42,589 nucleotides of DNA. Source: an uncultured Pseudomonadota bacterium. Lineage in GTDB: Bacteria > Pseudomonadota > Gammaproteobacteria > Methylococcales > Methylomonadaceae. Where the stretch lies: the NCBI GenBank assembly GCA_903876445.1, contig CAIQZX010000101.1, forward strand, positions 1 through 42,589, written 5' to 3'. Under the pieces are notes generated by a model, which saw only the letters and a list, made by a program, of their open reading frames with translations, did not search any database and was not told the origin of the DNA. Shown here piece after piece: positions 3,671-16,596 of the stretch. A program made the translations under genes and the position numbers. Numbering within the stretch: position 1 is the stretch's first letter; every line of letters starts with the position of its first letter.

Positions 3671-4639
3671 ATGAAGAAAAAAGTGTTTATAACCCGCCGC
3701 TGGACAGAATCGGTCGAAACGAAACTGCGTAATTTGTACGACGTAACATTAAATGAATCTGACCGACCATTAACGCCTGATGAATTCAAAGTTGCATTGC
3801 AAAATTACGATGCCGTTTGCCCAACCGTTTGTGATTCGTTTCCCGCCGATGTTTTAAATGTTGAAAATAAGCGATGCAAAATTTTGGCAAATTTTGGCGT
3901 TGGTTATAACCATATTGATATTGCGGCGGCAAAAGAAAATGGTTTGATTGTGACAAATACACCCAATGTTTTAACGCAAAGCACTGCTGATATTGCGATG
4001 ACTTTATTGTTAATGACGGCGCGACGCGGTGCAGAAGGCGATCGATTAGTGCGAGCAAAAAAATGGACGGGATGGTGTCCAACCAGTATGTTGAGTTCAA
4101 ATGTAACGGGTGCTACGCTGGGGCTAATTGGTTTTGGGCGTATTGGGCAAGCGATGGCACGCAAAGCCCATCACGGTTTTGACATGAATATCATTTATTT
4201 CAATCCGAGTGCTGCCGACGAATATGTCATACAAGATTTAAATGCTAAACGCTGCAATACGCTAGAGGAGTTATTACGGCAAGCGGATTTTGTTTCCCTA
4301 CATTGCCCTGCTGGTGCAAACACAAAACATTTAATCAATGCCGAAACGTTAAAATTCATGAAACCAACCGCACATTTAATCAATACAGCACGCGGTGATG
4401 TTGTGGACAGTTTAGCGTTAATTGATGCGTTAAAAACGAAGAAAATTGCGGGTGCAGGTTTAGATGTTTATGAAAATGAACCGAATTTAAATGCCGGTTT
4501 TTTAGAACTGGAAAATGCCGCATTATTACCACATTTAGGCAGCGCAACATTGGAAACACGCACCGCAATGGGCGAAAAAGTATTGGCAAATTTAGCCGCT
4601 TATTTTGCTGGGACGGCTTTGCCGGACTTGGTTGTTTAA
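3671..4639 (+). CDS. D-2-hydroxyacid dehydrogenase (glyoxylate/hydroxypyruvate reductase type)
   Basis: NAD(P)-dependent cytosolic reductase of the D-2-hydroxyacid dehydrogenase family; the closest functional guess is reduction of glyoxylate or hydroxypyruvate. Seen in 322 residues: N-terminal catalytic half with ANFGVGYNHID around residue 74, the dinucleotide-binding motif GLIGFGRIG at 151-159, catalytic R241 in NTARGDVVD, E270 in DVYENEP, and H288 in PHLGSAT. TGGAG sits 7 bp before ATG. It is monocistronic, starting just after the inverted-repeat element and ending at the hairpin-rich patch. The substrate cannot be read from sequence; phosphoglycerate dehydrogenase is less likely because there is no C-terminal ACT domain. 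Confidence 0.85.
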   Translation: MKKKVFITRRWTESVETKLRNLYDVTLNESDRPLTPDEFKVALQNYDAVCPTVCDSFPADVLNVENKRCKILANFGVGYNHIDIAAAKENGLIVTNTPNVLTQSTADIAMTLLLMTARRGAEGDRLVRAKKWTGWCPTSMLSSNVTGATLGLIGFGRIGQAMARKAHHGFDMNIIYFNPSAADEYVIQDLNAKRCNTLEELLRQADFVSLHCPAGANTKHLINAETLKFMKPTAHLINTARGDVVDSLALIDALKTKKIAGAGLDVYENEPNLNAGFLELENAALLPHLGSATLETRTAMGEKVLANLAAYFAGTALPDLVV

Positions 4640-4640
4640 C

Positions 4641-4733
4641 TTACCGTGCGAAATTTTCCACCCAGAGCTGATAGGCTTGGGTGGGGATGGATAGCATTCC
4701 TTCCGCGAAGCGGCTTTTGACTTTCTTATTCAT
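4641..4733 (-). CDS. Possible 30-residue ORF in a hairpin-rich intergenic patch
   Basis: A short frame starting at ATG 4733 with GGA about 12 bp upstream encodes 30 residues (MNKKVKSRFAEGMLSIP, then an aromatic tail ending in NFAR) and stops at TAA 4641, one base past the dehydrogenase stop. It may be a small gene or the decayed start of a larger one. The same DNA holds two hairpins: CCACCCA/TGGGTGG (4658-4684, extended by AGC/GCT with one bulge) and CCGC-GAA-GCGG (4703-4713) followed on the plus strand by CTTTTGACTTTCTT, which could terminate the dehydrogenase transcript. I recognise no family, so coding is doubtful. Confidence 0.2.
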   Translation of the reverse strand: MNKKVKSRFAEGMLSIPTQAYQLWVENFAR

Positions 4734-4752
4734 GCTGTAAAATTCCTATGCG

Positions 4753-5004
4753 CTTACATTGTTGGTCATTGAAAACCAAGAGACTAACAATGTATGGAAA
4801 AGCAAACCTATTTGCAATCTAAACCAATCATAGTCGGATTGTGCAACCAATTTGAGAAAGCAGGTTCTGTCGTGACTGTAAAGCGTTGCCCATCTTCTAA
4901 ACGGGTCAAAGCTCGTGTAGATGTGAAAGGTGCTGATATTGTTCTCAGTTCGGGTCAATCGAAGCCACTAATAGAACGCGACAGCTTTTAGTGGTTGGTA
5001 TTTC
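4753..5004 (+). mobile_element. Probable IS200/IS605-type remnant with hairpin ends
   Basis: TTAC (4753-4756) is followed at once by an 11-bp stem, CATTGTTGGTC (4757-4767) and GACTAACAATG (4782-4792), that pairs fully if one G-U is allowed. At the other side CCACTAA (4965-4971) pairs with TTAGTGG (4988-4994), followed by TTGGTATTTCAC. Subterminal hairpins at both ends, a TTAC-like tetranucleotide at the left and a right hairpin followed by a TTCAC-type tail are the layout of IS200/IS605 ends. The interior holds only a 65-codon frame (4794-4991) with no recognisable transposase, so this would be a non-autonomous relic. The assignment is by resemblance only. Confidence 0.35.
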
Positions 5005-5044
5005 ACTGATGACTCAACGTCTGCCAATAAAAACGCAATACCGG

Positions 5045-6046
5045 CTAAAACTTATACTCAAAACCAAGCCAAAGGTTATTATTTTTTACGTTTATCATTT
5101 CCGTATTTAACTTTCTATTTCCGTGTTGCCAGCCTAATTTCAGTTGTGTCGCCTCTGTCAATTCATATTCCAATTCAAGTTCACCTTGATAGATATTTTC
5201 ATTTGCCCCGAACCGTTCATCTTCTTTGATATGACTCATTGACGCATTATGTTCATAGTCAAAAATTAAATTTGTAGTTAATTTTTCAAGTAATTTTACT
5301 TTAAATTCGGCTGAAGCGTAATGATTTGTGTAAGACAAATCATCGGCAAAATGGGTTACGCGATGATGTTCTGCGCTACCTTTTTCGTAGTGATACCCGA
5401 TTAAAAATTCAACGTCTTCACTTATATTCCATTCAAGATGCGGTCCAATTGTCCAAAATTGCGTATCACGATGAATAAAAGGCTGATTGTAATTCCGTAA
5501 GCCGTAACGGCTAAGTAATCGAAATGTAAAATCTTCATTCAACTTCTGGTCAATGTGAAACGACCAATAATGACTTGTTAATGTTTCGTCGTGTTCCGCT
5601 TCTTCACCTGTTGACTGAATAAACGTATTTTTGCCTAAAAATAAATCGGGAACGAAGTTGTAATGTAAACTCAATTTTGTATTGGTTTCAAATGATTGCG
5701 CTAATTCAAAATCGAATAATCCATGTGTAAATGCGGTTTTATTTTTAAAAACATAGCCACCGGCATCTGCAGAAAAACTAATTTCACCAAACGAATTATG
5801 CTCAGTCCATTCAGTTTCTAAACTTGGTTCGTAGACAAAATCACTTCCCTGTCCTATTTTATCGATATTTGGCTGTGTTGGATCATCTTTAAGCGAAAGA
5901 CGGCGCGTTGCCGAAAAAAGCGCAACGTCATCGGTGTAATACAGTGCATTATCCGTTTTAAACGTCCATTCCGCTAAAACAAACGAACTTTTCGCCAAAA
6001 CAAAACAGATTACCAAAAATCTGAAAATTGGCTTTATCAATGCCAA
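5045..6046 (-). CDS. Outer-membrane beta-barrel protein of unknown function, last gene of the sulfide/cytochrome bd block
   Basis: The 333-residue product begins with a signal peptide (hydrophobic stretch to about residue 25, FVLA followed by EWTFK) and then consists of alternating hydrophobic and polar strands with many aromatic girdle residues. It ends in YKF, the C-terminal aromatic expected of an outer-membrane barrel. I do not recognise the family; it has no plug domain and no TonB box. The gene overlaps the preceding lipoprotein gene by 10 bp and lies downstream of cydX on the same strand, so it is probably co-transcribed with the sulfide-oxidation and cytochrome bd genes. A role as an envelope channel for a sulfur compound or product is inference from position only. 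Confidence 0.7.
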   Translation of the reverse strand: MALIKPIFRFLVICFVLAKSSFVLAEWTFKTDNALYYTDDVALFSATRRLSLKDDPTQPNIDKIGQGSDFVYEPSLETEWTEHNSFGEISFSADAGGYVFKNKTAFTHGLFDFELAQSFETNTKLSLHYNFVPDLFLGKNTFIQSTGEEAEHDETLTSHYWSFHIDQKLNEDFTFRLLSRYGLRNYNQPFIHRDTQFWTIGPHLEWNISEDVEFLIGYHYEKGSAEHHRVTHFADDLSYTNHYASAEFKVKLLEKLTTNLIFDYEHNASMSHIKEDERFGANENIYQGELELEYELTEATQLKLGWQHGNRKLNTEMINVKNNNLWLGFEYKF

Positions 6047-6525
6047 CCACCATATTGTGACGTTGGATCACCACGAAAACCGGTGCTGGTTTTATTCGCA
6101 TCTGGCGTGTTGACACTGTTACTTGCCGCTACAATCATATTTTGGCGCGTGTAACCACCCAACAATTTTGCCTTCACAGCTATATTGGTCGTTAGTGAAT
6201 TGATGTCGTAATTTGTTACTTCTGCGTCAATTACAACCGAAATTAAATTATCAGAACGCAACACAATCGGCAATTTTGTTTGAGCAGGAATTTCTAATTG
6301 ATAACGTCCATTTTCAACATTTGCCGAAGCAATCACATTTTCATCGTCTAACGCTTCAACATTGCCCGTTTTATTTTCAACTTTCCCAGAAATTAAAATA
6401 GATGTTGCGGTGTATTTCGTCACAGATTGCGTTGCGGGTTTTGATTGTTGCATTTCGTTGCACGCGCTTAATAAAAACGTATTAAACAAACCAAGTAGTA
6501 ATAATTTTTTGTTAAAAATCTGCAT
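6037..6525 (-). CDS. Small lipoprotein of unknown function
   Basis: The N-terminus reads MQIFNKKLLLLGLF and continues to a lipobox LLSAC at about residues 18-22, so the protein should be lipidated and periplasm-facing. The mature part (about 140 residues) has a beta-rich core resembling a carboxypeptidase-regulatory or transthyretin-like sandwich (ISGKVENKTG, GRYQLEIPA), and a distinctive tail, GFRGDPTSQYGGWH. I chose ATG 6525 rather than the upstream ATGs because GGAG lies 9 bp before it and because it overlaps the cydX stop by 14 bp, suggesting coupled translation. Overlaps the beta-barrel gene by 10 bp. The family is not recognised; lipoprotein plus barrel could form one envelope complex. 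Confidence 0.7.
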   Translation of the reverse strand: MQIFNKKLLLLGLFNTFLLSACNEMQQSKPATQSVTKYTATSILISGKVENKTGNVEALDDENVIASANVENGRYQLEIPAQTKLPIVLRSDNLISVVIDAEVTNYDINSLTTNIAVKAKLLGGYTRQNMIVAASNSVNTPDANKTSTGFRGDPTSQYGGWH

Positions 6526-6616
6526 TTGCATCTTCTCCAATTTCAAGCCACATTGAATTTATAATTGCCAATGCTGCCGCCAAACTTACTCCTAAAATCC
6601 ACGCAAAATACCACAT
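6512..6616 (-). CDS. cydX: Cytochrome bd oxidase small subunit CydX
   Basis: A 34-residue single-span protein starting MWYFAWILGVSLAAALA and continuing through INSMWLEIGED. The start (W-Y-F-A-W-hydrophobic-G), the transmembrane helix and the acidic C-terminal half are typical of the CydX/CbdX family, which sits beside CydA and stabilises the haems of cytochrome bd. GGAG lies 8 bp before the ATG. In most genomes cydX directly follows cydB; here a rhodanese gene lies between, yet the strand and 40-bp spacing keep it in the operon. Its 3' end overlaps the lipoprotein gene. Confidence 0.85.
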   Translation of the reverse strand: MWYFAWILGVSLAAALAIINSMWLEIGEDANADF

Positions 6617-6656
6617 AATTTTTCTCCGAGTTTAAAATGTACTCACGGCGTTGAGG

Positions 6657-7010
6657 TTACTTATTTTGCCATGCACGGTAGGCTTTCAATCCGCCTTCGA
6701 GATAGCGCACATTACTATATCCTATAGCACGCAAGCTATCTGCTGACAATGCGCCACGGTAATTCACATTGCAATAAGTGATGATGGGCGTATCTAAATT
6801 GGGGATTTCCTCTTCGATGTTCATTTCCAATTTGCCACGGCTAATATGTTTAGAGCCTGCAATATGATTGGCATCGTGTTCTTCTTTGTCACGAATATCC
6901 AACGCTAACACGCCGTCTGCCAAAAGAGCATCGACTTCATGCGGTTGTACAGGTGAAATTCGTGCGCGGGCGGCTTCGCCCATTTGAATAAACTTCTCGG
7001 AATAAGCCAT
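6657..7010 (-). CDS. Single-domain rhodanese-like sulfurtransferase
   Basis: A 117-residue rhodanese domain without signal peptide, so cytosolic. LALDIRDKEEHDANHIAGSKHI is the usual N-terminal signature, and the active-site loop is YCNVNYRG with catalytic Cys80 and the arginine at the sixth loop position. The loop is less glycine-rich than the common CxxGxRS form, which may affect substrate choice. The start is supported by GAGGAAAG just before ATG. It lies between cydB and cydX, 44 and 40 bp away, and probably handles sulfane sulfur (persulfide to glutathione, sulfite or another acceptor) produced by the upstream sulfide oxidoreductase; that role is inferred from context. Confidence 0.88.
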   Translation of the reverse strand: MAYSEKFIQMGEAARARISPVQPHEVDALLADGVLALDIRDKEEHDANHIAGSKHISRGKLEMNIEEEIPNLDTPIITYCNVNYRGALSADSLRAIGYSNVRYLEGGLKAYRAWQNK

Positions 7011-7054
7011 TTTCTTTCCTCATTATTGATGTTGATGATTATTTTTATCAGTTG

Positions 7055-8194
7055 TTAATACATCGTATGTTCATTAGCTTGAACTTGCTCAACCGTTACT
7101 TTGCCACGCATGATGCGATAAACCCAGCTCGTATAAAGTATCACAATCGGCATAAATACAATCGTCGCGGCGAGTAACATTTTCATTGTGTAATGACTTG
7201 CGCTAGCATCCCAAATCGTCAAACTGCTGGTGATTGAAAGCGTCGAAGGCAAAATAAACGGGAACATCGAACCGCCCGCCGTCACAATCGCGCCAATCAT
7301 TGCCAAACTGCTCAACACAAACGCCGTGGCGGAATGCTGTTTAGCGGTAAAAAATGGCGCGGATAAAGCTGAAATAACAGTCATAATAGGCGCAAGTAAA
7401 AGCAATGGATAAATACTGTAATTTGCAAGCCATAAACCTGTGCTTTTCTCGACTGTTTTGTGTAACGGATTTGCCGTAATCGTTGTGTCGATGGCAGACG
7501 TAATTTTATAACCGTCCAAACCAAAAGCCACCCAAACACCCGCCAATAAAAACAACATTACAAACAAAATGCTACTCCAACGAATCACAGCTTGAGCGCG
7601 TTCCGCAATAAAACTTTCGGTTTTCCAATGTAAATAAACTGCACCGTGCATCACGCATAACGACACACCAACTAATACGCAAAGAATTGGGAATAATTGA
7701 AACAAATCAAATAATCCGCCTGTGTAAGTTGAACGCATATCGGCATCGAGTTCAAACGGCAACCCGACCATTAAATTTCCGGCCGCCAAACTTAATACGA
7801 CTGCGGGAACAGTTCCGCCTACAAACAAACCCCAATCCCAGAAACTACGCCATTCCGGATTTGCTAATTTACTGCGATAATCGAAACCGACGGGACGTAA
7901 AAACAAGGCAAACAAAAGTAAAAGCAATCCTGAATAAACGCCTGAAAATAACACCGCATAAACAATTGACCACGCGCCAAACGTAATGCCGCCCAATGTG
8001 ACTAACCACGTTTGATTACCTTCCCATGTTGGACCAACGGTATTGAGCATGACGCGCCGTTCATCATCGGTTTTACCTAAAAACGGCAACAAAATTGCAA
8101 TGCCAAAATCAAAGCCATCCATCACCGCAAAACCGCAAATTAAGAAAACTAAAATTGCCCACCAAATAATGCGTAACGATTCATAATCAAACAT
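7055..8194 (-). CDS. cydB: Cytochrome bd ubiquinol oxidase subunit II
   Basis: Integral membrane subunit that supports CydA in quinol oxidation and oxygen reduction. The 379-residue protein begins MFDYESLRIIWWAILVFL and carries the family segment GFAVMDGFDFGIAILLPFLG, then WEGNQTWLVTLGG, with about eight to nine membrane helices. I choose ATG 8194 because GGAG stands 6 bp upstream and because it overlaps the cydA stop by 8 bp, the usual coupled arrangement; an upstream ATG at 8215 would add seven residues lying wholly inside cydA. Followed by the rhodanese gene after 44 bp. Confidence 0.95.
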   Translation of the reverse strand: MFDYESLRIIWWAILVFLICGFAVMDGFDFGIAILLPFLGKTDDERRVMLNTVGPTWEGNQTWLVTLGGITFGAWSIVYAVLFSGVYSGLLLLLFALFLRPVGFDYRSKLANPEWRSFWDWGLFVGGTVPAVVLSLAAGNLMVGLPFELDADMRSTYTGGLFDLFQLFPILCVLVGVSLCVMHGAVYLHWKTESFIAERAQAVIRWSSILFVMLFLLAGVWVAFGLDGYKITSAIDTTITANPLHKTVEKSTGLWLANYSIYPLLLLAPIMTVISALSAPFFTAKQHSATAFVLSSLAMIGAIVTAGGSMFPFILPSTLSITSSLTIWDASASHYTMKMLLAATIVFMPIVILYTSWVYRIMRGKVTVEQVQANEHTMY

Positions 8195-9752
8195 GACCGG
8201 CTCCTTGTTTTTCAAAGTGATAATTACCTGTATGCAAACTGCTTGCGCCTAAACGAATATATTTCACCATTAAAAATAATTCGATAATTAGCAATGCGGT
8301 GTACATCACAACAAAGCCTGTAATACTACCCATAAGCTGACCACTGCTTAAACTTGATGTACTTAAATGCGTGGGCAAAATGTTAGCAATTGTCCAAGGT
8401 TGACGACCATATTCAGCCACTACCCAACCTAATTCGCTCGCAATCCAAGGAAGTGGAATTCCCCAAAATGCCATTTTTAACAACCAGCGTTGATTATGTG
8501 CATCGCGCTTAACATTGAAATAAAACGAAGCGACAAAAATGAATAACATCAGCACACCACAAAACACCATGCCGCGAAATGTCCAAAACATCGGCGCAAC
8601 TTTGGGAATCGAATCTTTAATCGCAGATTCAATTTGAGCTGGTGTCGCATCAACGACATTTTCCGTATATTTTTTGAGTAACAAACCGTGACCTAAATCT
8701 TTTTTATGTTGCTCAAAAATCGCTTTGGCAACGTCGTTAGTTTTGTCTTCGCGCAAAATTTGCAAATTTTCATAAGCAATCATGCCGTTTTCAATGCGAT
8801 GACGTTTGCGTTCTCGAATCGTATCAAGCCCATCAATTTTTTCGTCAATCGAGCGGGTTGCAATTAACCCAAGTAAATAGGGAATCGTAACGGCATAATC
8901 CGTTTTTCTTGTTTCTTCATTTGGAAAACCAATTAACGTAAAAGAGGCGGGAGCTTCTTCGGTTTCCCATTCTGCTTCAATCGCCGCAAGTTTTGCACGT
9001 TGTACTTCGCCAACGGTGTAACCACTTTCATCACCTAAAACAATTACCGATAAAATGGCGGCTAAACCGAAACCTGATGCAATCCGGAATGAACGTCGTG
9101 CAAATGGAACGTCTTGATTTTTTAATAAATAGAATGCGCTGATACCCAGCACAAACATCGAACCTGTCACATAACCGGCGGCGACTGTGTGAACAAATTT
9201 CACTTGAGCGACAGGATTAAAGAAAATTTCAGAAAAACTGGTCAATTCCATTCGCATCGTGTTGTAATTGAATTCTGCACCAACCGGATTTTGCATCCAC
9301 GCATTCGCAATTAAAATCCATAACGCCGATAAATTTGTTCCAAGCGCAAGCAACCATGTTGTTGATAAATGCTGCATTTTGCTCATTCTGTCCCAACCGA
9401 AAAAGAAGAGACCAACAAATGTAGATTCTAAAAAGAATGCCATCATGCCTTCGATAGCTAATGGAACGCCGAAAATATCGCCAACATAATGCGAGTAATA
9501 TGCCCAATTTGTGCCGAACTGAAATTCCATCGTCAAACCGGTCGTTACACCCATCGCAAAGTTAATACCGAACAACTTACCCCAAAAGCGCGTCATGTCT
9601 TTGTAAATTTGCTTATTTGTCATCACATAAAGCGACTCCATAATCGCCAAAATAAATGACAATCCCAGCGTCAACGGCACAAATAAAAAGTGATACATCG
9701 CAGTAATGGCGAATTGCATCCTTGATAAATCTACAACTTCATTGGTAATCAT
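8187..9752 (-). CDS. cydA: Cytochrome bd ubiquinol oxidase subunit I
   Basis: Catalytic subunit of cytochrome bd, carrying haems b558, b595 and d in the inner membrane. The 521 residues match the long-Q-loop (E. coli-like) form. Seen: MQFAITAMYHFLFVPLTLG with H21 as the first haem ligand, VKFVHTVAAGYVTGS with the second histidine, the Q-loop region from about 250 to 380, TFRGMVFCG with the axial methionine, and the conserved GRQPW. Start and stop overlap cydP and cydB (ATGA and 8 bp), implying one translation unit. Cytochrome bd resists sulfide inhibition, which fits placement behind a sulfide:quinone oxidoreductase. Confidence 0.96.
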   Translation of the reverse strand: MITNEVVDLSRMQFAITAMYHFLFVPLTLGLSFILAIMESLYVMTNKQIYKDMTRFWGKLFGINFAMGVTTGLTMEFQFGTNWAYYSHYVGDIFGVPLAIEGMMAFFLESTFVGLFFFGWDRMSKMQHLSTTWLLALGTNLSALWILIANAWMQNPVGAEFNYNTMRMELTSFSEIFFNPVAQVKFVHTVAAGYVTGSMFVLGISAFYLLKNQDVPFARRSFRIASGFGLAAILSVIVLGDESGYTVGEVQRAKLAAIEAEWETEEAPASFTLIGFPNEETRKTDYAVTIPYLLGLIATRSIDEKIDGLDTIRERKRHRIENGMIAYENLQILREDKTNDVAKAIFEQHKKDLGHGLLLKKYTENVVDATPAQIESAIKDSIPKVAPMFWTFRGMVFCGVLMLFIFVASFYFNVKRDAHNQRWLLKMAFWGIPLPWIASELGWVVAEYGRQPWTIANILPTHLSTSSLSSGQLMGSITGFVVMYTALLIIELFLMVKYIRLGASSLHTGNYHFEKQGAGHV

Positions 9753-9925
9753 TTTAATTTTTCCTCTTTTGATATTGAGTCGCCTAGCAACCGATTAGCA
9801 AGATGCTGTTCATCAATGTGGATTTTTTGTCCAGCGAAGCAAAACCACCACACAAGTCCAAACAATGTAAATTTGATGATGATGGCGAATGTCATTTCCC
9901 AGCGAAAACGGTTAATTGCTTTCAT
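9749..9925 (-). CDS. cydP: Small membrane protein upstream of cydA, CydP-like
   Basis: A 58-residue frame joined by ATGA overlaps to sulP (9922-9925) and to cydA (9749-9752). It reads MKAINRFRWEMTFAIIIKFT, then a single transmembrane helix ending in GLVWWFCFAG, then a polar tail with HLANRLLG. A basic N-terminus, one helix with a WW(F) end and position directly upstream of cydA match the family annotated as cytochrome oxidase putative small subunit CydP. The exact double overlap makes a real gene very likely; the family name rests on recall of the pattern. Confidence 0.78.
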   Translation of the reverse strand: MKAINRFRWEMTFAIIIKFTLFGLVWWFCFAGQKIHIDEQHLANRLLGDSISKEEKLK

Positions 9926-11616
9926 AGCGTATTCAATTTGTTAACGGCTTCGTTCGTATCAAAAAATACCTGACCACTCAATTGTGTTAACAAATGACCT
10001 CTTTCCAATTTAACCTGTACAAAATGTTTGACTTCTGCAAGATTCAACGAAATTTTTGTCTCTTTTAAATTCGAATTCAATTGTTCTAAGGCTTCTAATG
10101 CTGTCATATCTATATCGCTTACCGATGTAAAAACCAACACGATATGTTTTATGCTTGGAGCTAATTTTAGTTCGCTATCAATAAACTCTTCGATAAAATT
10201 GATGTTTGCAAAAGTGATACTTTCATCGATGCGTAATAACAGCAAGTTGTCCCATTTTTCTAAACAATCAATGCAATGGTTTTTCACATTTCGATAATAA
10301 GGCGTATTTGGAATGCGTCCGAGTACAGCAATGTGTGGATGACTTGTTTTGCGTAAATGGCTAATAAATGTAAGAAAAATCCCTAGCGTTAATCCTTCTT
10401 CAATACCCAAAACCAACACGCCAATCAACGTCATGGCTTCTGCAATACCGTCACCTTTATCGTAATTCCAAGTATGACGAACGCTAGAAAATTTCACCAA
10501 CGGGACAATAGCAACCAAAATAATGACCGCTAAGGCTGCTTTAGGGATTTGACTAAATAATGCACTGAAAAATACAACGGCAAAAGCTAAAAGCATCGCT
10601 GCAATAACCATTGAAATTTGTGAGCGTGCGCCAGCCGAAAAATTTACCATTGTTCGACTAAAACCACCGGCGACAGGCATCCCACCAGAAATTGCCGCCG
10701 CAAAATTTGCCACGCCTAATGCAATCAATTCTTGATTTGGCTCAATTTTTTCGCCACGCAAATTTGCCATGACTTTCGCAATCGCGACACTTTCAACATA
10801 AGCAATCAATGCGATAAATGTGGCGGAAGACAATAAAACGCGCCATTTTTCTACATCAATAAAATCAACGTTTAACGATGGTAAACCCGCTGGAACATTA
10901 CCGACAACAGATACATTCAGCGACCATTTTGTGACAATCAATGTCGTTATTAAAACCGTGAAAATCGCGCCGCATTTAGTAAATGAATTCACAAAAGAAG
11001 GCGGAACTCCCATTTTTTTCAATAAAGATGACAGCGGTTTGTTGAAAAATAAAAGAATGGCTAAAGCAATAAGACTGATAACCAATGTGGCGAAATTCGT
11101 ATTTTGAAAATAGGATTCATAACAGTTTAAATCGATGCCGCAAACGGGCGATTTTAAACCTAACGTTTGCGGTAATTGACTTCCAATAATCAGTAACGCC
11201 GCGCCACTCGTAAAACCAGTGAGAACAGGATGACTAATAAAATTCACCAACCCCCCCATTCTAAACATCGACATCAGCACCATAATCGCGCCACTTTCTG
11301 CCGATAAAATCACCGCACTTTGCAACGGATTTCCGAGTTCACTAACAGCTGGAGACGTTAATGCACTAGCAATCATAATCGCCGCAATCGAAACAGGACC
11401 AACTGAAAGCGTACGACTTGTTCCTAAAACAGCGTAAAAAAGTGGTGGCAAAATACTCGCATACAACCCAAACTCTGGCGGCAAACCGGACAAGAGTGCG
11501 TAAGCAATACCCTGCGGAACGAGTAAAATTGCAGTGATAATGCCTGCAAATAAATCGCCATTAAAATCTTCGCGGCGATAGGTTTTTAACCAGCTGAAAA
11601 TTGGAAAGAAAGACAT
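9922..11616 (-). CDS. SulP-family anion transporter with C-terminal STAS domain
   Basis: A 564-residue inner-membrane transporter of the SulP/SLC26 family. Seen: the N-terminal signature LLVPQGIAYALLSGLPPEFGLYAS, the GTSRTLSVGPVS segment, about 10-14 membrane helices, EPNQELIALGVANFAAA in the core, and a cytosolic STAS domain from about residue 435 containing DIDMTALEAL. It begins 3 bp after the stop of the sulfide oxidoreductase gene and its TGA overlaps the cydP ATG. SulP proteins carry sulfate, bicarbonate and other anions; given the operon, export of the oxidised sulfur product or exchange of sulfate/sulfite is attractive but cannot be told from sequence. Confidence 0.9.
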   Translation of the reverse strand: MSFFPIFSWLKTYRREDFNGDLFAGIITAILLVPQGIAYALLSGLPPEFGLYASILPPLFYAVLGTSRTLSVGPVSIAAIMIASALTSPAVSELGNPLQSAVILSAESGAIMVLMSMFRMGGLVNFISHPVLTGFTSGAALLIIGSQLPQTLGLKSPVCGIDLNCYESYFQNTNFATLVISLIALAILLFFNKPLSSLLKKMGVPPSFVNSFTKCGAIFTVLITTLIVTKWSLNVSVVGNVPAGLPSLNVDFIDVEKWRVLLSSATFIALIAYVESVAIAKVMANLRGEKIEPNQELIALGVANFAAAISGGMPVAGGFSRTMVNFSAGARSQISMVIAAMLLAFAVVFFSALFSQIPKAALAVIILVAIVPLVKFSSVRHTWNYDKGDGIAEAMTLIGVLVLGIEEGLTLGIFLTFISHLRKTSHPHIAVLGRIPNTPYYRNVKNHCIDCLEKWDNLLLLRIDESITFANINFIEEFIDSELKLAPSIKHIVLVFTSVSDIDMTALEALEQLNSNLKETKISLNLAEVKHFVQVKLERGHLLTQLSGQVFFDTNEAVNKLNTL

Positions 11617-11619
11617 GGT

Positions 11620-12870
11620 TTAATCGTTATCAACAAACTTTTTAGCGTAATCCGACTTGTGTGGAATATCGAAACGAATGCCTTTCAACATTAAATCCCA
11701 ATACATCCACGGGAAGCCCCATTTTTTACCAATCCACCAAATCCAACGTGGCACGCGCGGATCTAAAAATGGGAAAGAAGGTGTTATTTTTCCATCGTAA
11801 CTAAATTCCGCCAAAATAACGCTATCAAGCGAAGTTACTAACGGACAAGAACCGTAACCGTCATATTTAGGCGATAAACTTTCTGCTTTCATAAGATGCA
11901 AAATGTTATCGACAACAACAGGAACTTGTTTGCGAACAGCGGCGGCTGTTTTTGCATTAGTTGTTGAAGCCGCGTCACCTAAACCAAAAATGTTGGCGTA
12001 TTTATTGTGTTGCAACGTATTAGGATGCACATCAACACGCCCATCCACATTTGCAAGCGGACTAGTTTTGATAAAATCCGGTGCGCTTTGTGGTGGAGAG
12101 ATATGAATCATGTCGAATTTTTCAACTGTTTGCTGTTTGTTGCCATTCGCGTCAGTAAATTCAAAGGTCGCTGTTTTTGCTTCACCATCAACGGCGATTA
12201 AGTTGTGAGCAAAGTGCGTTTTAATGCCGTAACTGTCCACAATTTTTGCAAGTGCTTTGGCAAAAAATGGAATACCAAACATTGCCGCGCCAACATTGAA
12301 AAACTCAACGCTGATTTTGTCGGAAATCCCTTTTTTACGGAATCTATCCGCCGCCATATACATCACTTTTTGTGGTGCTCCAGCACATTTAATTGGCATA
12401 GCTGGCATGGTAAATAATGCACGCCCTGCTCCCAAATTTTTAATACATTCCCAAGTGTATTCAACCGTTTCAGGGGAATAATTGCTGCATACGCCATTTT
12501 TGTTTAATGCTTCTTTTGCACCGGCAATTTTGTGCCAATCCAATTGAAAACCGGGACAAACGACTAAATAATCGTAACTGATTACGTCCCCATTTTTTAA
12601 CGTTACCGTGTTGTTATCGGGTTGAAAGGTGTCAGCAAATTCTTTAATCCATGTCACACTAGATGGAATTAAATCCGCTTCGTTTCGTGTGTGGTCGGCT
12701 AATTTTGATTCACCGCCACCAATAATCGTGAATGCCGCTTGGTAATAATGTTTTTCGCTTGGTTCGATAACGGCAATATCGATTTCTCCATTTACGCGAC
12801 GCATATTGTTAGCCACTGAAACGCCTGCTGCGCCTCCACCAACAATTAACAAAGTATGATGTTGTGTCAT
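11620..12870 (-). CDS. sqr: Sulfide:quinone oxidoreductase, type II (mitochondrial SQOR-like)
   Basis: FAD-dependent, peripheral membrane oxidoreductase that oxidises sulfide to sulfane sulfur and passes electrons to quinone. Seen in 416 residues: N-terminal FAD site LLIVGGGAAGVSVA, the first redox cysteine C162 in PIKCAGAPQKVMYM, the second flavin segment GLGDAASTTNAKTAAAV, the second redox cysteine C342 in YDGYGSCPLVTS, and a hydrophobic C-terminus (WIWWIGKKWGFPWMYWDLML) for membrane contact. The KCAGAPQK and YDGYxSCPLVT motifs are those of human SQOR, placing it in type II rather than flavocytochrome c. Its partner genes are the persulfide dioxygenase upstream and cytochrome bd downstream. 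Confidence 0.92.
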   Translation of the reverse strand: MTQHHTLLIVGGGAAGVSVANNMRRVNGEIDIAVIEPSEKHYYQAAFTIIGGGESKLADHTRNEADLIPSSVTWIKEFADTFQPDNNTVTLKNGDVISYDYLVVCPGFQLDWHKIAGAKEALNKNGVCSNYSPETVEYTWECIKNLGAGRALFTMPAMPIKCAGAPQKVMYMAADRFRKKGISDKISVEFFNVGAAMFGIPFFAKALAKIVDSYGIKTHFAHNLIAVDGEAKTATFEFTDANGNKQQTVEKFDMIHISPPQSAPDFIKTSPLANVDGRVDVHPNTLQHNKYANIFGLGDAASTTNAKTAAAVRKQVPVVVDNILHLMKAESLSPKYDGYGSCPLVTSLDSVILAEFSYDGKITPSFPFLDPRVPRWIWWIGKKWGFPWMYWDLMLKGIRFDIPHKSDYAKKFVDND

Positions 12871-12909
12871 GTTTTAAATCCTCAGTTTTATAGTTATTTT
12901 CACTGCGTT

Positions 12910-12930
12910 GAGCGCGAACGAATCGCGCTC
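12910..12930 (-). other. Strong intercistronic hairpin between the persulfide dioxygenase and SQR genes
   Basis: GAGCGCGA (12910-12917) pairs perfectly with TCGCGCTC (12923-12930) around a five-base loop, inside the 69-bp gap. There is no T-run on the minus strand after it, so it is not a classic terminator. It could stabilise the upstream message, partly attenuate transcription, or be a REP-like unit. Confidence 0.5.
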
Positions 12931-12939
12931 CTATTTTAC

Positions 12940-14031
12940 TTATTTATTCCAACCTTCAAAACCACCTGCTAACGATAAAACATTCGTATAACCAAGTAGT
13001 TGCAATGTTTGCGCGGCAAGAGCTGAACGTCCACCGGTGCGGCAATAAATTAACACGGCTTTCGTTTTATCTGCCAATTCTGGAATCGTATTTAATTTAA
13101 ATTCCAACACGCCGCGTGGTAACAAAATTGCATTATTGATATGACCTGCTGCAAATTCGCTTTCTTCGCGGGTATCGATTAGCGTGATATTTTCTTCTGC
13201 TAATAATTTCCGTGCCATTTCAGCATTCACTTCAACGATATTTTGTTTTGCTAAAGCAACTAAATCTTGTCCTGTTGTGCCGCCTTGAACTTGCATCACA
13301 CAAACTGGAGCTTCAGCGTCACGAGTTTTAACAGCTTGAGTGCGTTCATTTTCATCTAAACCGCAATAACGATTCGCTGGCACCGCTTGATCAATCAAAC
13401 GTGGCGCAGGTAAGTTTAAATTGTTCATAATTTCAATGAACTGGTCACGAGTTTTATGCGCCAAACGTGGATTTGTGGTGCGTTCTTGAATGATGTTGCT
13501 CACATACCGCTGTTGATAATCGTGTCCTGGATAAACAAGCGTGTCGTCTGGCAGTGTAAATAAACGTTGCGTAATCGCATCGTATAAAGAACCAGCATCT
13601 CCACCTTGGAAATCTGTACGACCACAACCACCAATGAAAAGTGAATCACCACTAAATAAACGCCCGCACCATAAAAAAGAGGTGCAACCGGGTGTATGAC
13701 CAGGTGTTGCAATCGCTTTGATTTGTTCGCTACCTAACATGAAAACATGACCATCTTGAATGGCAACATCGACTAATTTTGCGCCACCGTGTTGACTTAC
13801 ACAGGTTTTCGCTCCTGTGTGTTGGCGTAACAAACCGCTCGCTGTAATGTGATCCGCGTGAACGTGTGTTTCAAAAGAAAAGATTAACTTCAAATCGTGT
13901 TGTTTCAACAAATCTAAATAGGTGTCTAAATGTGTGTTGACAGGATCGATAAATGCCGCTTCTTTACTAGCATCATCAGCAATCAGATAAGTGTAAGTCC
14001 ATGTTGCAGGATCGAATAATTGTTTAAACAT
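12940..14031 (-). CDS. Persulfide dioxygenase-rhodanese fusion (ETHE1-like)
   Basis: A two-domain cytosolic enzyme of 363 residues. The N-terminal metallo-beta-lactamase domain (about 1-235) has THVHADH (H56, H58, D60, H61), H112 in TPGHTPG, D129 in SGDS and H170 in YPGHDY; in ETHE1 enzymes the iron is held by two His and one Asp corresponding to H56, H112 and D129. The C-terminal rhodanese domain (about 265-363) has active-site C330 in YCRTGGRS. Such fusions oxidise glutathione persulfide to sulfite and can transfer sulfur between sulfite, thiosulfate and glutathione. First gene of the minus-strand block; sqr starts 69 bp downstream across a hairpin. A sigma54-type control region lies upstream. 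Confidence 0.92.
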   Translation of the reverse strand: MFKQLFDPATWTYTYLIADDASKEAAFIDPVNTHLDTYLDLLKQHDLKLIFSFETHVHADHITASGLLRQHTGAKTCVSQHGGAKLVDVAIQDGHVFMLGSEQIKAIATPGHTPGCTSFLWCGRLFSGDSLFIGGCGRTDFQGGDAGSLYDAITQRLFTLPDDTLVYPGHDYQQRYVSNIIQERTTNPRLAHKTRDQFIEIMNNLNLPAPRLIDQAVPANRYCGLDENERTQAVKTRDAEAPVCVMQVQGGTTGQDLVALAKQNIVEVNAEMARKLLAEENITLIDTREESEFAAGHINNAILLPRGVLEFKLNTIPELADKTKAVLIYCRTGGRSALAAQTLQLLGYTNVLSLAGGFEGWNK

Positions 14032-14116
14032 AATTGTTACTCCGAATTTTTAAATGTAAGTTGGATTGAAGTTGTACATTTGCTTTTGCCACTTCTGAAG
14101 AAAGTCAACTAAAGCA

Positions 14117-14135
14117 TTTGCAGTGTTTATGCCAA
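14117..14135 (-). promoter_or_regulatory. Sigma54 (RpoN) promoter for the sulfide-oxidation operon
   Basis: Read on the minus strand, TTGGCATAAACACTGCAAA has GG and GC separated by exactly 10 bp and matches the -24/-12 consensus (TGGCA ... TGCA). It predicts transcription from about 14108, some 77 bp before the persulfide dioxygenase ATG, in the gap behind mrdA. The paired palindromes upstream support the call. Confidence 0.65.
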
Positions 14136-14199
14136 TTTTAACAAACCAATAACAACGCGCTTTCAGGGTCTTTATTGTCGTTATATTTTGTGTGTCTCA

Positions 14200-14235
14200 T
14201 GTTTCAATGAAACAAAAAAATCGTTTCTTTGAAAC
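14200..14235 (-). promoter_or_regulatory. Tandem palindromic activator sites (enhancer-like)
   Basis: TGTTTCAATGAAACA (14200-14214) and GTTTCTTTGAAAC (14223-14235) are two near-identical palindromes whose centres are 22 bp apart, two helical turns. They lie about 100 and 120 bp upstream of the start predicted for the sigma54 promoter, the usual place for sites of a bacterial enhancer-binding protein. FisR, a sigma54 activator of sqr-pdo operons, is the obvious candidate family, but no regulator gene is in the window. Confidence 0.6.
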
Positions 14236-14275
14236 AATTTACAGAGAGGAGCCGCATCAAATCGGCGAGATTATA

Positions 14276-16123
14276 TTAACGCTGGATTTCAAAATTAGCT
14301 AAGTATTGTTCAATTACTTTTCCGGCAATTGGCGCAGCAATTGAACCGCCATGTCCACCATTTTCAACAACAACAGCCACAGCAATTTTAGGATTTTCCG
14401 CTGGCGCAAAGGCAATAAACAGTGCGTGATCTCTTAATTTGAAATCAATCGCCTCTTCGTTATATTTTGCTTCTTGTTTGATATTGAATACTTGTGCCGT
14501 TCCTGTTTTGCCGGCGATATGATAGGTAATTTTTTTACCGATATTTTTAGCTGTTCCATGCGAATCATGCACCACATTTACCATCGATTCCGTTATGTGT
14601 TGTACATTTTCTGTTTTCAATGGAATCACTTTATTATTTGTTTCTGACATCACTCGCGTTTCGGTTGCTGAAACAATTTTATCCACCAAAAATGGTGTAA
14701 CTACTTTTCCACCATTTGCTAAAGTTGCGGTCGCTCGAGCTAATTGAATTGGTGTAACTTGTAAATAACCTTGACCAATTCCTGTAATTAACGTTTCACC
14801 GGGATACCAATTTTGATTTTTCTTTTCTTTTTTCCATTCGCGTGACGGCAATAAACCACTTTTTTCGCCAACTAAATCAATGCCCGTTTTTTCGCCAAAA
14901 CCAAATTGCTGTAAAAATTGGTGCATATTATCAATGCCTAAAATCGATGCGAGACTATAAAAATACACGTCACACGATTCTGTAATTGCCTCACTCATAT
15001 TAACTGCGCCGTGACCACTATGTTTCCAATCACGATATTTATGAGGTGCGTTCGGTAACTGATAAAAACCCGGACAAAAATGCTTTTGTTCAAAACTGAT
15101 TGCATTAAATTCCAATCACGCTAAACCGATAAAGGGTTTCATCGTTGAGCCGGGCGGATATAAACCTCGCAAGGCGCGATTATAAAGTGGCTGATTTTCA
15201 GACGATTGCAAGGCTTGATAAGCCTCATAATCAATTCCCACCACAAATGGATTGGGATCAAAACCGGGACGACTTGAAAAAACTAACACGCCACCTGTTT
15301 GCACATCGAGAGCAACGACCGCACCGTTATAACCTTCAAGCGCATCATAAGCCGTTTTTTGTAAATCAATATCGAGTGTTAAATAAAGATTCGTGCCTGC
15401 AACAGGCGGTGTGGTGTTAAATGTATTGATGGCGCGTGACTGAACATTCGTTTCTATTTCTGCATAACCCGTTTTGCCGTGCAATTGCGTTTCGTAAAAA
15501 CTTTCAATTCCTAATTTTCCAACATGACTTGAGCCGCGATATTCCGACATGGATAATGTTTTCATTTCCGCTTCATTGATTCGGCTTACATAACCCACAA
15601 CATGAGCCGCTAAATCGCCATAAGGATAATGACGAACAAGACGTGATTGAATATCAACACCAGTAAAATAAGGACGCATAACGGCAAATTTTGCAATTTC
15701 TTCATCGGTCATACTAAGTAAAAGCGGTGTGCTAACAAATCGTTTTTGCCTTTTACGTTGTTTTTGAAATTGTTCAATTTTTTCATTTGGAATGTTTAAT
15801 AATTCTTGTAATCGTAACAATGTACCATCCAAATCGCTGATTTTTTCCGGCATCAATTCCAGACTAAATGATTGCGTATTTTCAGCGAGAATTTTTCCGT
15901 TACGATCATAAATCATGCCGCGCGTTGGAACGAGTGGCTGGATTTTTACGCTATTTTCTTTCGCTAGCGTAGCGTAATGTTCATGTCCAACAATTTGCAA
16001 ATAAACTAATCTAACAATTAGCCCTAAAGTTAGTAATACAACAATACAAAAGGCGGCAATAATTCGATTAACAAAAACTTGATTTTCGACTGAATTGTCT
16101 TTTAGAGAATAAAGACGAGGCAT
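14276..16123 (-). pseudogene. mrdA: Penicillin-binding protein 2 gene interrupted by an in-frame TGA
   Basis: Together the two halves form a 615-codon PBP2, the elongasome transpeptidase of lateral-wall synthesis. The start is ATG 16123 (MPRLYSLKDN), 2 bp after the mreD stop. Seen: N-terminal membrane helix (about 25-45), a pedestal domain with TRGMIYDRNGK, the active-site serine motif PPGSTMKPF, the SCD motif in ESCDVYFY, and AGKTGTAQV. Codon 336 is TGA (15116-15118) within GLA-stop-LEFN, where homologues have glycine (AGL), so one G-to-T change from GGA explains it. Everything after it is intact, in frame and conserved. The upstream fragment keeps the serine but lacks SxN and KTG; the downstream piece lacks the serine. 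Either a recent nonsense mutation or a sequencing error. rodA does not follow. Confidence 0.85.
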
Positions 16124-16125
16124 GG

Positions 16126-16596
16126 CTAGAAACGTCGAACAAAACGCATAACATGATAAACAACAAACCAACTCGCTGTACCGCTCAACACGGGCAGCCA
16201 AAATGCACCGTGTAATTGAGCGGGAACTTTCAAATTCTCAAACCAAAACAACAATAATTGCGAAATCAATAAACACCCAAATACAAACACACTCTGTTGC
16301 AAAAGTGGGTATTGGCGTAATTGGCGATGCCAAATTAAAATTAAATAAACAATCAACGAATACGATAAGGCGTACTGCCCTAAAAACCGCCCCATTAAAA
16401 CGTCTGTCAAAATACCAAAAAACCACGCATAACTAATACCTACACGTTCTGGAAGTGCCAAACTCCAATAAATTAACACTAACAAAACCCAATCGGGATT
16501 AAATATGGCTAAACTTTCTGGCAAAAATAAAATCCGTAAACACATTGCGAGAATCAATGTTACAAAAATCCGAACGAAACCGTGTTCGTTATTCAT
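16126..16596 (-). CDS. mreD: Rod shape-determining protein MreD
   Basis: Small polytopic inner-membrane protein of the elongasome, 156 residues with about five to six membrane helices. The recognisable segment is FNPDWVLLVLIYWSLALPERVGISYAW (cut here to its start PDWVLLVLIYWSLALP), followed by FGILTDVLMGRFLGQYALSY, both typical of MreD. It overlaps the end of mreC by 8 bp and stops 2 bp before mrdA, so it is translated as part of the mreBCD-mrdA unit. Confidence 0.9.
   Translation of the reverse strand: MNNEHGFVRIFVTLILAMCLRILFLPESLAIFNPDWVLLVLIYWSLALPERVGISYAWFFGILTDVLMGRFLGQYALSYSLIVYLILIWHRQLRQYPLLQQSVFVFGCLLISQLLLFWFENLKVPAQLHGAFWLPVLSGTASWFVVYHVMRFVRRF

What the first reader, a model, noticed from the sequence alone, without database searches (positions are those of the whole stretch)
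5045..14031. Ten-gene sulfide-oxidation plus cytochrome bd operon
In one minus-strand run with short gaps or overlaps lie a persulfide dioxygenase-rhodanese fusion, a type II SQR with both redox cysteines, a SulP transporter, CydP, CydA, CydB, a rhodanese, CydX, a lipoprotein and an outer-membrane barrel. SQR plus persulfide dioxygenase operons are known, and cytochrome bd is known to tolerate sulfide, but a physically coupled sulfide-to-quinone-to-oxygen chain with transporter and envelope genes as one unit reads as a complete detoxification and respiration module. The ATGA overlaps sulP/cydP/cydA show that transporter and oxidase are translationally tied.
Basis: partly seen in the sequence, partly recalled or inferred. 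Interest (0 to 1): 0.75.

Follow-up and report, generated by a model that had tools for sequence, protein, structure and literature searches.

The report
Sulfide-oxidation and cytochrome bd operon
In a methane-oxidizing bacterium, the genes that oxidize toxic sulfide sit in one run with the genes of an oxygen-using enzyme that sulfide is not expected to poison, apparently under one shared DNA control site, and the same pairing is seen in some other bacteria.

Summary
The ten-gene minus-strand run is real: PDO-rhodanese, type II SQR, SulP, CydP-like, CydA, CydB, rhodanese, CydX, lipoprotein, weak barrel call; all gaps 69 nt or less. The host is a Methylococcales methanotroph. This element precedes pdo (or an exported rhodanese) in 30 of 41 family loci, 0 of 980 shuffles and 0 of 355 other ORFs. 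In four congeners with the cluster split, both the pdo and the cyd unit carry it, so joint control survives separation. Relatives encode a FisR-like sigma54 activator divergently beside it. Other CydA lineages are paired with SQR or PDO elsewhere in Methylococcales, in Alphaproteobacteria and in Bacteroidota. Counter-evidence: four near-complete congeners have SQR but no cydA, and 25 of 49 genomes with both genes do not have them together. The activator of this genus lacks the PAS domain found in most relatives, and in the window's genome it lies in a housekeeping cluster, so sulfide sensing is unexplained. Verdict: a sulfide-detoxifying respiratory operon of known parts in a new, jointly controlled combination. 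No expression or biochemical test was possible.

The parts
14223..14235 (-). UAS palindrome 1, GTTTCAAAGAAAC (starts 204 nt upstream of the pdo ATG)
   Evidence: the double palindrome occurs at one place in the 2.8 Mb genome, 0 for the reversed control
14201..14213 (-). UAS palindrome 2, GTTTCATTGAAAC
   Evidence: exact UAS+sigma54 pattern matches in 22 of 121 genomes, 0 control matches
14119..14135 (-). sigma54-type -24/-12 promoter TTGGCATAAACACTGCA (consensus recalled)
   Evidence: one RpoN (PF04552) match in own genome
12940..14031 (-). pdo: persulfide dioxygenase-rhodanese fusion, 363 aa
   Evidence: (BpPRF, 211.8 bits over residues 1-362)
12910..12930 (-). strong hairpin between pdo and sqr; no T tract on the minus strand
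   Evidence: z-score -3.42 for the 69-nt gap
11620..12870 (-). sqr: type II sulfide:quinone oxidoreductase, 416 aa, Cys162 and Cys342
9922..11616 (-). sulP: SLC26/SulP anion transporter with STAS domain, 564 aa
   Evidence: (TIGR00815 401.7 bits, cut-off 380.45)
9749..9925 (-). cydP-like small membrane protein, 58 aa
   Evidence: NF045611 28.2 bits, cut-off 29.6
8187..9752 (-). cydA: cytochrome bd subunit I, 521 aa
   Evidence: (only PF01654 match in own genome)
7055..8194 (-). cydB: cytochrome bd subunit II, 379 aa
6657..7010 (-). single-domain rhodanese, 117 aa, Cys80
6512..6616 (-). cydX, 34 aa
   Evidence: TIGR02106 60.5 bits
6037..6525 (-). lipoprotein, 162 aa, conserved tail near QYGGWH
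   Evidence: model mean pLDDT 66.1, no fold match at E<=0.001
5045..6046 (-). putative outer-membrane beta-barrel, 333 aa
   Evidence: below Pfam cut-offs; structure prediction unusable

Best explanation
It is one sigma54-dependent operon for sulfide detoxification by respiration in a methanotroph. An activator of the FisR kind binds the two GTTTC-N3-GAAAC sites and opens the -24/-12 promoter (inferred from sequence). SQR oxidizes sulfide through the Cys162/Cys342 pair and FAD and puts electrons into the quinone pool. The persulfide formed is oxidized to sulfite by the PDO domain, and the rhodanese domains make thiosulfate from it. SulP carries a sulfur oxyanion out, in the slot that TauE fills in the sister operon type. 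CydABX(P), a sulfide-insensitive oxidase, takes the electrons from quinol to O2, so the chain keeps running when heme-copper oxidases are poisoned. Shown here: gene content, order, the control element and its conservation, and the element before both halves of split clusters. From known families: the enzyme chemistry and the insensitivity of bd. Inferred: binding, induction, export and flux.
For: Gene identities. UAS+sigma54 element before pdo/xRhd in 30 of 41 family loci examined, 0 of 980 shuffles, 0 of 355 other ORF starts. Exact pattern: 33 rows, 32 distinct sites in 22 of 121 genomes, 0 control matches; by my comparison with gene coordinates 29 of 32 lie before sulfide/cyd genes. Both halves of split clusters carry the element in G012 and G004 and, on separate contigs, in G016 and G013. 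One further site at one mismatch, in a locus I had fetched as a control (L185, G055), precedes a SoxB-like gene. FisR-like activator divergent upstream of xRhd, pdo or sqr in 18 of 51 relatives' family loci, many cut by contig ends; 21 of 22 motif genomes have the activator (Fisher p 2.5e-5 over 121 genomes, 0.0075 within the family). Pairing with other CydA lineages and in other phyla. TauE (PF01925) in the transporter slot of two sister clusters. Published passages: A. baumannii FisR activates a pdo-sqr-tauE operon and sulfide induces cydAB (PMC7315123); E. coli bd oxidases are H2S-insensitive (PMC8657789); Methylobacter sp. S3L5C raises its three sqr genes and soxB with sulfide plus organic matter (PMC12211021).
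Against: No transcript or enzyme data. 11 of 41 family loci lack the element at one mismatch per box (one of the 11, L053, has an exact site). G001, G005, G008 and G014 have SQR and no cydA match, and 25 of 49 genomes with both genes do not have them within 10 kb (some are on broken contigs). The lone cyd operons of G070, G067, G044 and G043 and the sister PDO-cyd clusters (L187, L194-L196, L198) show no such element. The cyd contigs of G009 and G002 show none either, but begin just before or inside sulP. G013 and G016 are fragmented assemblies (4% and 3% contamination), so their 'split' may be partly an assembly matter. The activator in this genus lacks a sensor domain and in the window's genome is not next to the operon. 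A stable hairpin between pdo and sqr could lower distal expression. The S3L5C paper does not mention cyd or cytochrome bd in its main text.
Confidence: 0.77

Rival explanations
1. The unit is a low-oxygen rather than a sulfide unit: the activator answers redox state or O2, bd serves high-affinity respiration at the oxycline, and sqr-pdo ride along because sulfide and low O2 coincide there.
For: bd is a high-affinity oxidase (recalled; also stated in a passage of PMC12810054); the activator in this genus has no sensor domain and the PAS domain of its relatives could sense redox; one exact site of the same motif in G014 precedes genes that are not sulfide or cyd genes, one with a weak multicopper-oxidase-type match; the only bd match of this genome lies in the unit.
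Against: The element marks the xRhd-pdo-sqr region even where no cydA is found (G008, G014), while lone cyd operons of other genera lack it (G070, G067, G044, G043). A FisR activator controls pdo-sqr in A. baumannii (PMC7315123). A site precedes a SoxB-like gene in G055.
Confidence: 0.17
2. Neighbourhood without joint function: cyd genes landed next to sqr and are transcribed by read-through, with no selected role in sulfide respiration.
For: Order is fluid within the genus (cyd upstream, downstream or absent), and the genes are apart in 25 of 49 genomes.
Against: Pairing with different CydA lineages: the SQR-linked label needs 8 gains or losses on the tree, at least 5 forced by supported branches. 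23 of 24 pairs are co-oriented. Split cyd units keep their own UAS+sigma54 element in four genomes.
Confidence: 0.06

Closest known systems
FisR/sigma54-controlled pdo-sqr-tauE operon of Acinetobacter baumannii (PMC7315123, passages seen; Cupriavidus FisR, Li et al. 2017, seen only as a citation)
   Same: PDO plus SQR plus an anion transporter, sigma54-type promoter, divergent AAA+/Fis activator (in relatives of the window)
   Different: Here SulP stands in place of TauE, cyd genes belong to the same operon, and the activator in this genus has no N-terminal regulatory domain and in the window's genome is encoded elsewhere
PDO-CydAB-CydX cluster with divergent FisR-like activator in other Methylococcales (L194-L196, L198, L187)
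   Same: activator, PDO and cyd genes in one cluster, with a TauE gene in the two clusters read (L196, L198)
   Different: no type II SQR match in the cluster, TauE in place of SulP, PAS-type N-terminus kept, this UAS+sigma54 element not found; a multicopper oxidase gene inserted in L196
SQR-CydAB clusters of Litorimonas/Hellea (L140, L127) and Bacteroidota (L146, L152, L157, L158, L160, L162)
   Same: SQR, PDO-like and CydAB genes co-oriented, CydA about 2-5 kb downstream of SQR
   Different: distant CydA lineages; in L140 an ArsR-type regulator and a peroxiredoxin gene stand at the head
Escherichia coli cytochrome bd-I
   Same: CydA 770.9 bits, CydX model met
   Different: E. coli cyd is not in a sulfide-oxidation operon (recalled)

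Membership tests
Type II sulfide:quinone oxidoreductase | closest to human SQOR rather than to type I enzymes; two redox cysteines | tested here: met
   341 bits to human SQOR against 76.7 (3hyv); Cys162 and Cys342 in aligned motifs. Against: the best NCBIfam hit is a type III selenoprotein-subtype model, 209.7 bits, far below its cut-off of 525. That the two cysteines are the redox pair, and the type labels, are recalled.
PDO-rhodanese fusion (BpPRF kind) | ETHE1-like MBL domain with HxHxDH plus C-terminal rhodanese with active-site Cys | tested here: met
   residues 1-362 match 5ve3, 211.8 bits; HVHADH at 56; Cys330. Not Blh: 118.5 bits against a cut-off of 625
Cytochrome bd-I-type oxidase | CydA, CydB and CydX matches | tested here: met
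CydP | NF045611 over its cut-off | tested here: inconclusive
   28.2 against 29.6 bits; a similar short gene precedes cydA in relatives
FisR-type sulfide regulon | sigma54 -24/-12 promoter with upstream activator sites before pdo/sqr | tested here: met
FisR-type sulfide regulon | activator gene divergent beside the operon | tested here: not met
   not met in the window's genome (gene on contig C76 between holC and aroC); met in 18 of 51 relatives' family loci laid out
FisR-type sulfide regulon | N-terminal regulatory domain on the activator | tested here: not met
   0 of 18 congeneric genomes at E<=0.01 with one PAS query, 26 of 58 other genomes; frames in the genus 311-350 aa;
FisR-type sulfide regulon | cysteines of the regulatory domain that react with sulfane sulfur | tested here: inconclusive
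   in the longer relatives one column is Cys in 14 of 20; no Cupriavidus sequence was available for comparison
FisR-type sulfide regulon | induction by sulfide | not testable with these tools
   no expression data

The most novel reading that the evidence does not exclude
In this methanotroph genus the FisR-like activator has lost its sensor domain, and in the window's organism it has moved into a housekeeping cluster (pepA-holC-activator-aroC), so the sulfide-to-oxygen chain would be permanently switched on, or switched by an unknown partner, as a standing adaptation to life at the sulfide/oxygen boundary.
Probability: 0.4. Interest if true: 0.62.

Novelty: new variant of a known kind. Interest (0 to 1): 0.52.

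Why it matters
Sulfide poisons heme-copper oxidases, and how methanotrophs keep respiring where sulfide meets oxygen is little known. A control element that ties SQR-PDO to a bd oxidase predicts which oxidase carries methanotroph respiration under sulfide and gives a DNA signature to look for in other genomes and metatranscriptomes. Pairing of SQR or PDO with different CydA lineages suggests that selection favours joining sulfide oxidation to a sulfide-proof quinol oxidase.

Tried and rejected
The structure of the barrel gave no usable model (mean pLDDT 28.6). The lipoprotein model (66.1) had no fold match at E<=0.001. Rfam at gathering thresholds found nothing in 4600-14400. Sigma70-like promoter and terminator scans gave no excess over shuffles. 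A search of plasmids for the PAS domain found nothing. SoxB (TIGR04486) has no match at E<=0.001 in the own genome. A Flavobacteriaceae survey could not be run.

In print: PMC searches and passages of the papers opened showed no report of a FisR-type operon that includes cydAB, nor of SQR-cyd operons in methanotrophs. The library is open-access PMC only; of the papers opened I saw passages, of the rest listings or the start of abstracts.
Full report
Observation. The two ATGA overlaps (sulP/cydP, cydP/cydA) are real. Identities are firm for PDO-rhodanese, SQR, SulP, CydA, CydB, the rhodanese and CydX, slightly under the cut-off for CydP, and weak for the barrel. Upstream lie a penicillin-binding-protein gene and mreD, mreC and mreB.

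Organism. A lake origin is recalled for some isolate codes, not tested. The window's genome has one PF02461 (pmoA-type) match, as have 15 of 18 genomes of the genus; two COX1-family matches, one cydA, one rpoN and no SoxB match.

Control region. 104 nt upstream of the pdo ATG begins TTGGCATAAACACTGCA, a -24/-12 type site (consensus recalled); two palindromes GTTTC-N3-GAAAC begin at -204 and -182. The double palindrome occurs at one place in the 2.8 Mb genome. Allowing one mismatch per box, the palindrome-plus-sigma54 arrangement lies within 450 nt upstream of pdo or of the exported rhodanese (xRhd) in 30 of the 41 family loci that had such a start with enough upstream sequence. It appears in 0 of 980 shuffled upstream regions and before 0 of 355 other ORFs of 150 aa or more in the same loci. 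The 11 misses are L053, L054, L065, L067, L074, L075, L078, L083, L086, L091 and L093; L053 has an exact site, before a rhodanese gene that the script did not count. An exact pattern search of 121 genomes gave 33 rows (32 distinct sites, 22 genomes) and no match for the reversed control. Comparing positions, I place 29 of 32 before xRhd, pdo, sqr or sulP-cyd; for G048:C111 and G071:C95 this rests on coordinates only. Of the other three, the sites in G014:C37 and G007:C200 lie close to contig ends and the one in G014:C71 precedes two genes of other kinds, one with a weak multicopper-oxidase-type match. At one mismatch per box one more site turned up in a locus fetched as a control, L185 of G055; it stands about 100 nt before a gene whose best model is SoxB, 160.2 bits against a cut-off of 550, so SoxB-like rather than a member. 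soxB was induced together with sqr in Methylobacter sp. S3L5C (PMC12211021, passages).

A natural experiment. In G012 and G004 the cyd genes have left the sqr side and follow xRhd, and both the xRhd-cyd unit and the pdo-sqr unit carry the element. In G016 and G013 a sulP-cydP-cydA unit on its own contig carries it before sulP, and so do their xRhd-pdo or pdo units. These two assemblies are fragmented (in G013 the contig ends inside cydA; in G016 the motif-bearing pdo contig ends inside pdo). This is the strongest evidence here for joint control. Against it, lone cyd operons of four other genera (G070, G067, G044, G043) have no such element, and the cyd contigs of G009 and G002 show none, though they begin just before or inside sulP.

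The activator. An AAA+/Fis sigma54 activator with GAFTGA lies divergently upstream of xRhd, pdo or sqr in 18 of the 51 relatives' family loci laid out; 32 of 69 genomes with it have it within 10 kb of SQR or CydA starts. Motif and activator co-occur: 21 of 22 motif genomes have the activator, 48 of the 99 others do (Fisher p 2.5e-5; within the family p 0.0075). The exception, G006, has a truncated copy at a contig end. Genomes are related, so these p values are generous. In most other genera the protein has about 130 extra N-terminal residues with a PAS match (E 5.5e-5). In the window's genus 15 of 18 genomes have it at E<=1e-90, with reading frames of 311-350 aa that start at the AAA+ domain. 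A search with one PAS domain found nothing at E<=0.01 in the 18 genomes of the genus (five weak hits of E 0.03-0.26 in very long frames) and 26 hits among 58 other genomes. Shortened frames also occur in G025, G051 and G069 (334-396 aa), so the loss is not confined to this genus. In the window's genome the gene lies between holC and aroC, behind pepA. How sulfide is sensed, if at all, is therefore open. A. baumannii FisR also lacks the cysteines known from Cupriavidus (PMC7315123, passage).

Spread of the coupling. Using coordinates typed, 49 of 121 genomes have both a type II SQR and a CydA; in 24 they are within 10 kb (21 within 5 kb), 23 of 24 co-oriented, where about 0.4 would be expected by a rough calculation. 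In the window's genus, 10 of 18 genomes have a full-length cydA, and 7 of these 10 have sqr within 10 kb; of the three others, two have sqr at or near a contig end. G001, G005, G008 and G014 (96-97% complete) have SQR and no cydA match, and G005 retains a cydP-like remnant behind sulP. In five genomes of family f6 SQR and CydA are 150-177 bp apart. In another branch the activator is divergent from PDO, which is followed by CydA, CydB and CydX, with a TauE gene between PDO and CydA in the two clusters read; the element described here was not found in those clusters. A CydA tree of 45 rows needs 8 changes (gains or losses) of the SQR-linked label, at least 5 forced by supported branches. The label is nevertheless clustered (1 of 500 shuffles as low), the root is a midpoint, one row is very long, and rows were chosen from loci in hand, so gains and losses cannot be told apart. 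Of 48 named loci outside Methylococcales, 9 show CydA within the held flank, 8 on the same strand: Litorimonas, a Hellea MAG, and six Bacteroidota (Kordia, Kriegella, Mesoflavibacter, Lacinutrix and two unnamed MAGs); the ninth is a cyanobacterium on the opposite strand. Many of these loci are cut by contig ends.

Mechanism. Sulfide is oxidized by SQR, persulfide by PDO, thiosulfate is made by rhodanese chemistry, an oxyanion leaves by SulP, and quinol is reoxidized by sulfide-insensitive bd. The chemistry is known for each family; its joint operation here is inferred. SulP as exporter is argued from position: TauE takes that slot in two sister clusters and in A. baumannii, where it is called a putative effluxer (PMC7315123). 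SulP proteins can also import (recalled), so direction is not shown. The lipoprotein seems tied to the sulP side (L049, L052 without cyd); its role and the barrel's are unknown.

Novelty. All enzymes, the FisR kind of control and the resistance of bd are known. New, as far as the searches named in Tried and rejected go, are the inclusion of the bd oxidase in such an operon in methanotrophs, the conserved element that ties both halves, the pairing with several CydA lineages, and the missing sensor domain of the activator.

Noticed in passing
window 14276-16201 (-): A penicillin-binding-protein gene (dimerisation plus transpeptidase domains) is split into two adjacent frames meeting at 15115/15116, apparently by one in-frame stop codon; sequencing error or real interruption not tested.
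   Followed up: no
window 12910-12930 (-): Stable hairpin between pdo and sqr (z-score -3.42 for the gap), followed by T-rich sequence only on the plus strand; unique in the window.
   Followed up: partly
   Followed up: partly
L191 7917-9485: In G014, which has no cydA match, the same UAS+sigma54 motif precedes two genes, one with a weak multicopper-oxidase-type match and, by recall, a PmoD-like look, hinting at a copper link.
   Followed up: partly
L167 8439-12439: In the window's genome the activator gene lies in a pepA-holC-activator-aroC cluster, away from its presumed target.
   Followed up: yes
L196 7007-8884: A multicopper-oxidase gene lies between the TauE gene and cydA in a PDO-TauE-CydAB cluster.
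   Followed up: partly
L140 7474-16982: Litorimonas cladophorae has peroxiredoxin, an ArsR-type regulator, PDO, SQR with an N-terminal extension, SulP, an MBL/rhodanese protein, CydA and CydB in one co-oriented run.
   Followed up: partly
L054 2868-5045: G005 has no cydA match but keeps an exported rhodanese and a CydP-like remnant behind an interrupted sulP match: apparent decay of the cyd part.
   Followed up: no
L179 4991-11750: G020 has a short-type CydA and CydB behind PDO-SQR and a partial SulP match, with the same control element before PDO: a further pairing with another CydA kind.
   Followed up: partly
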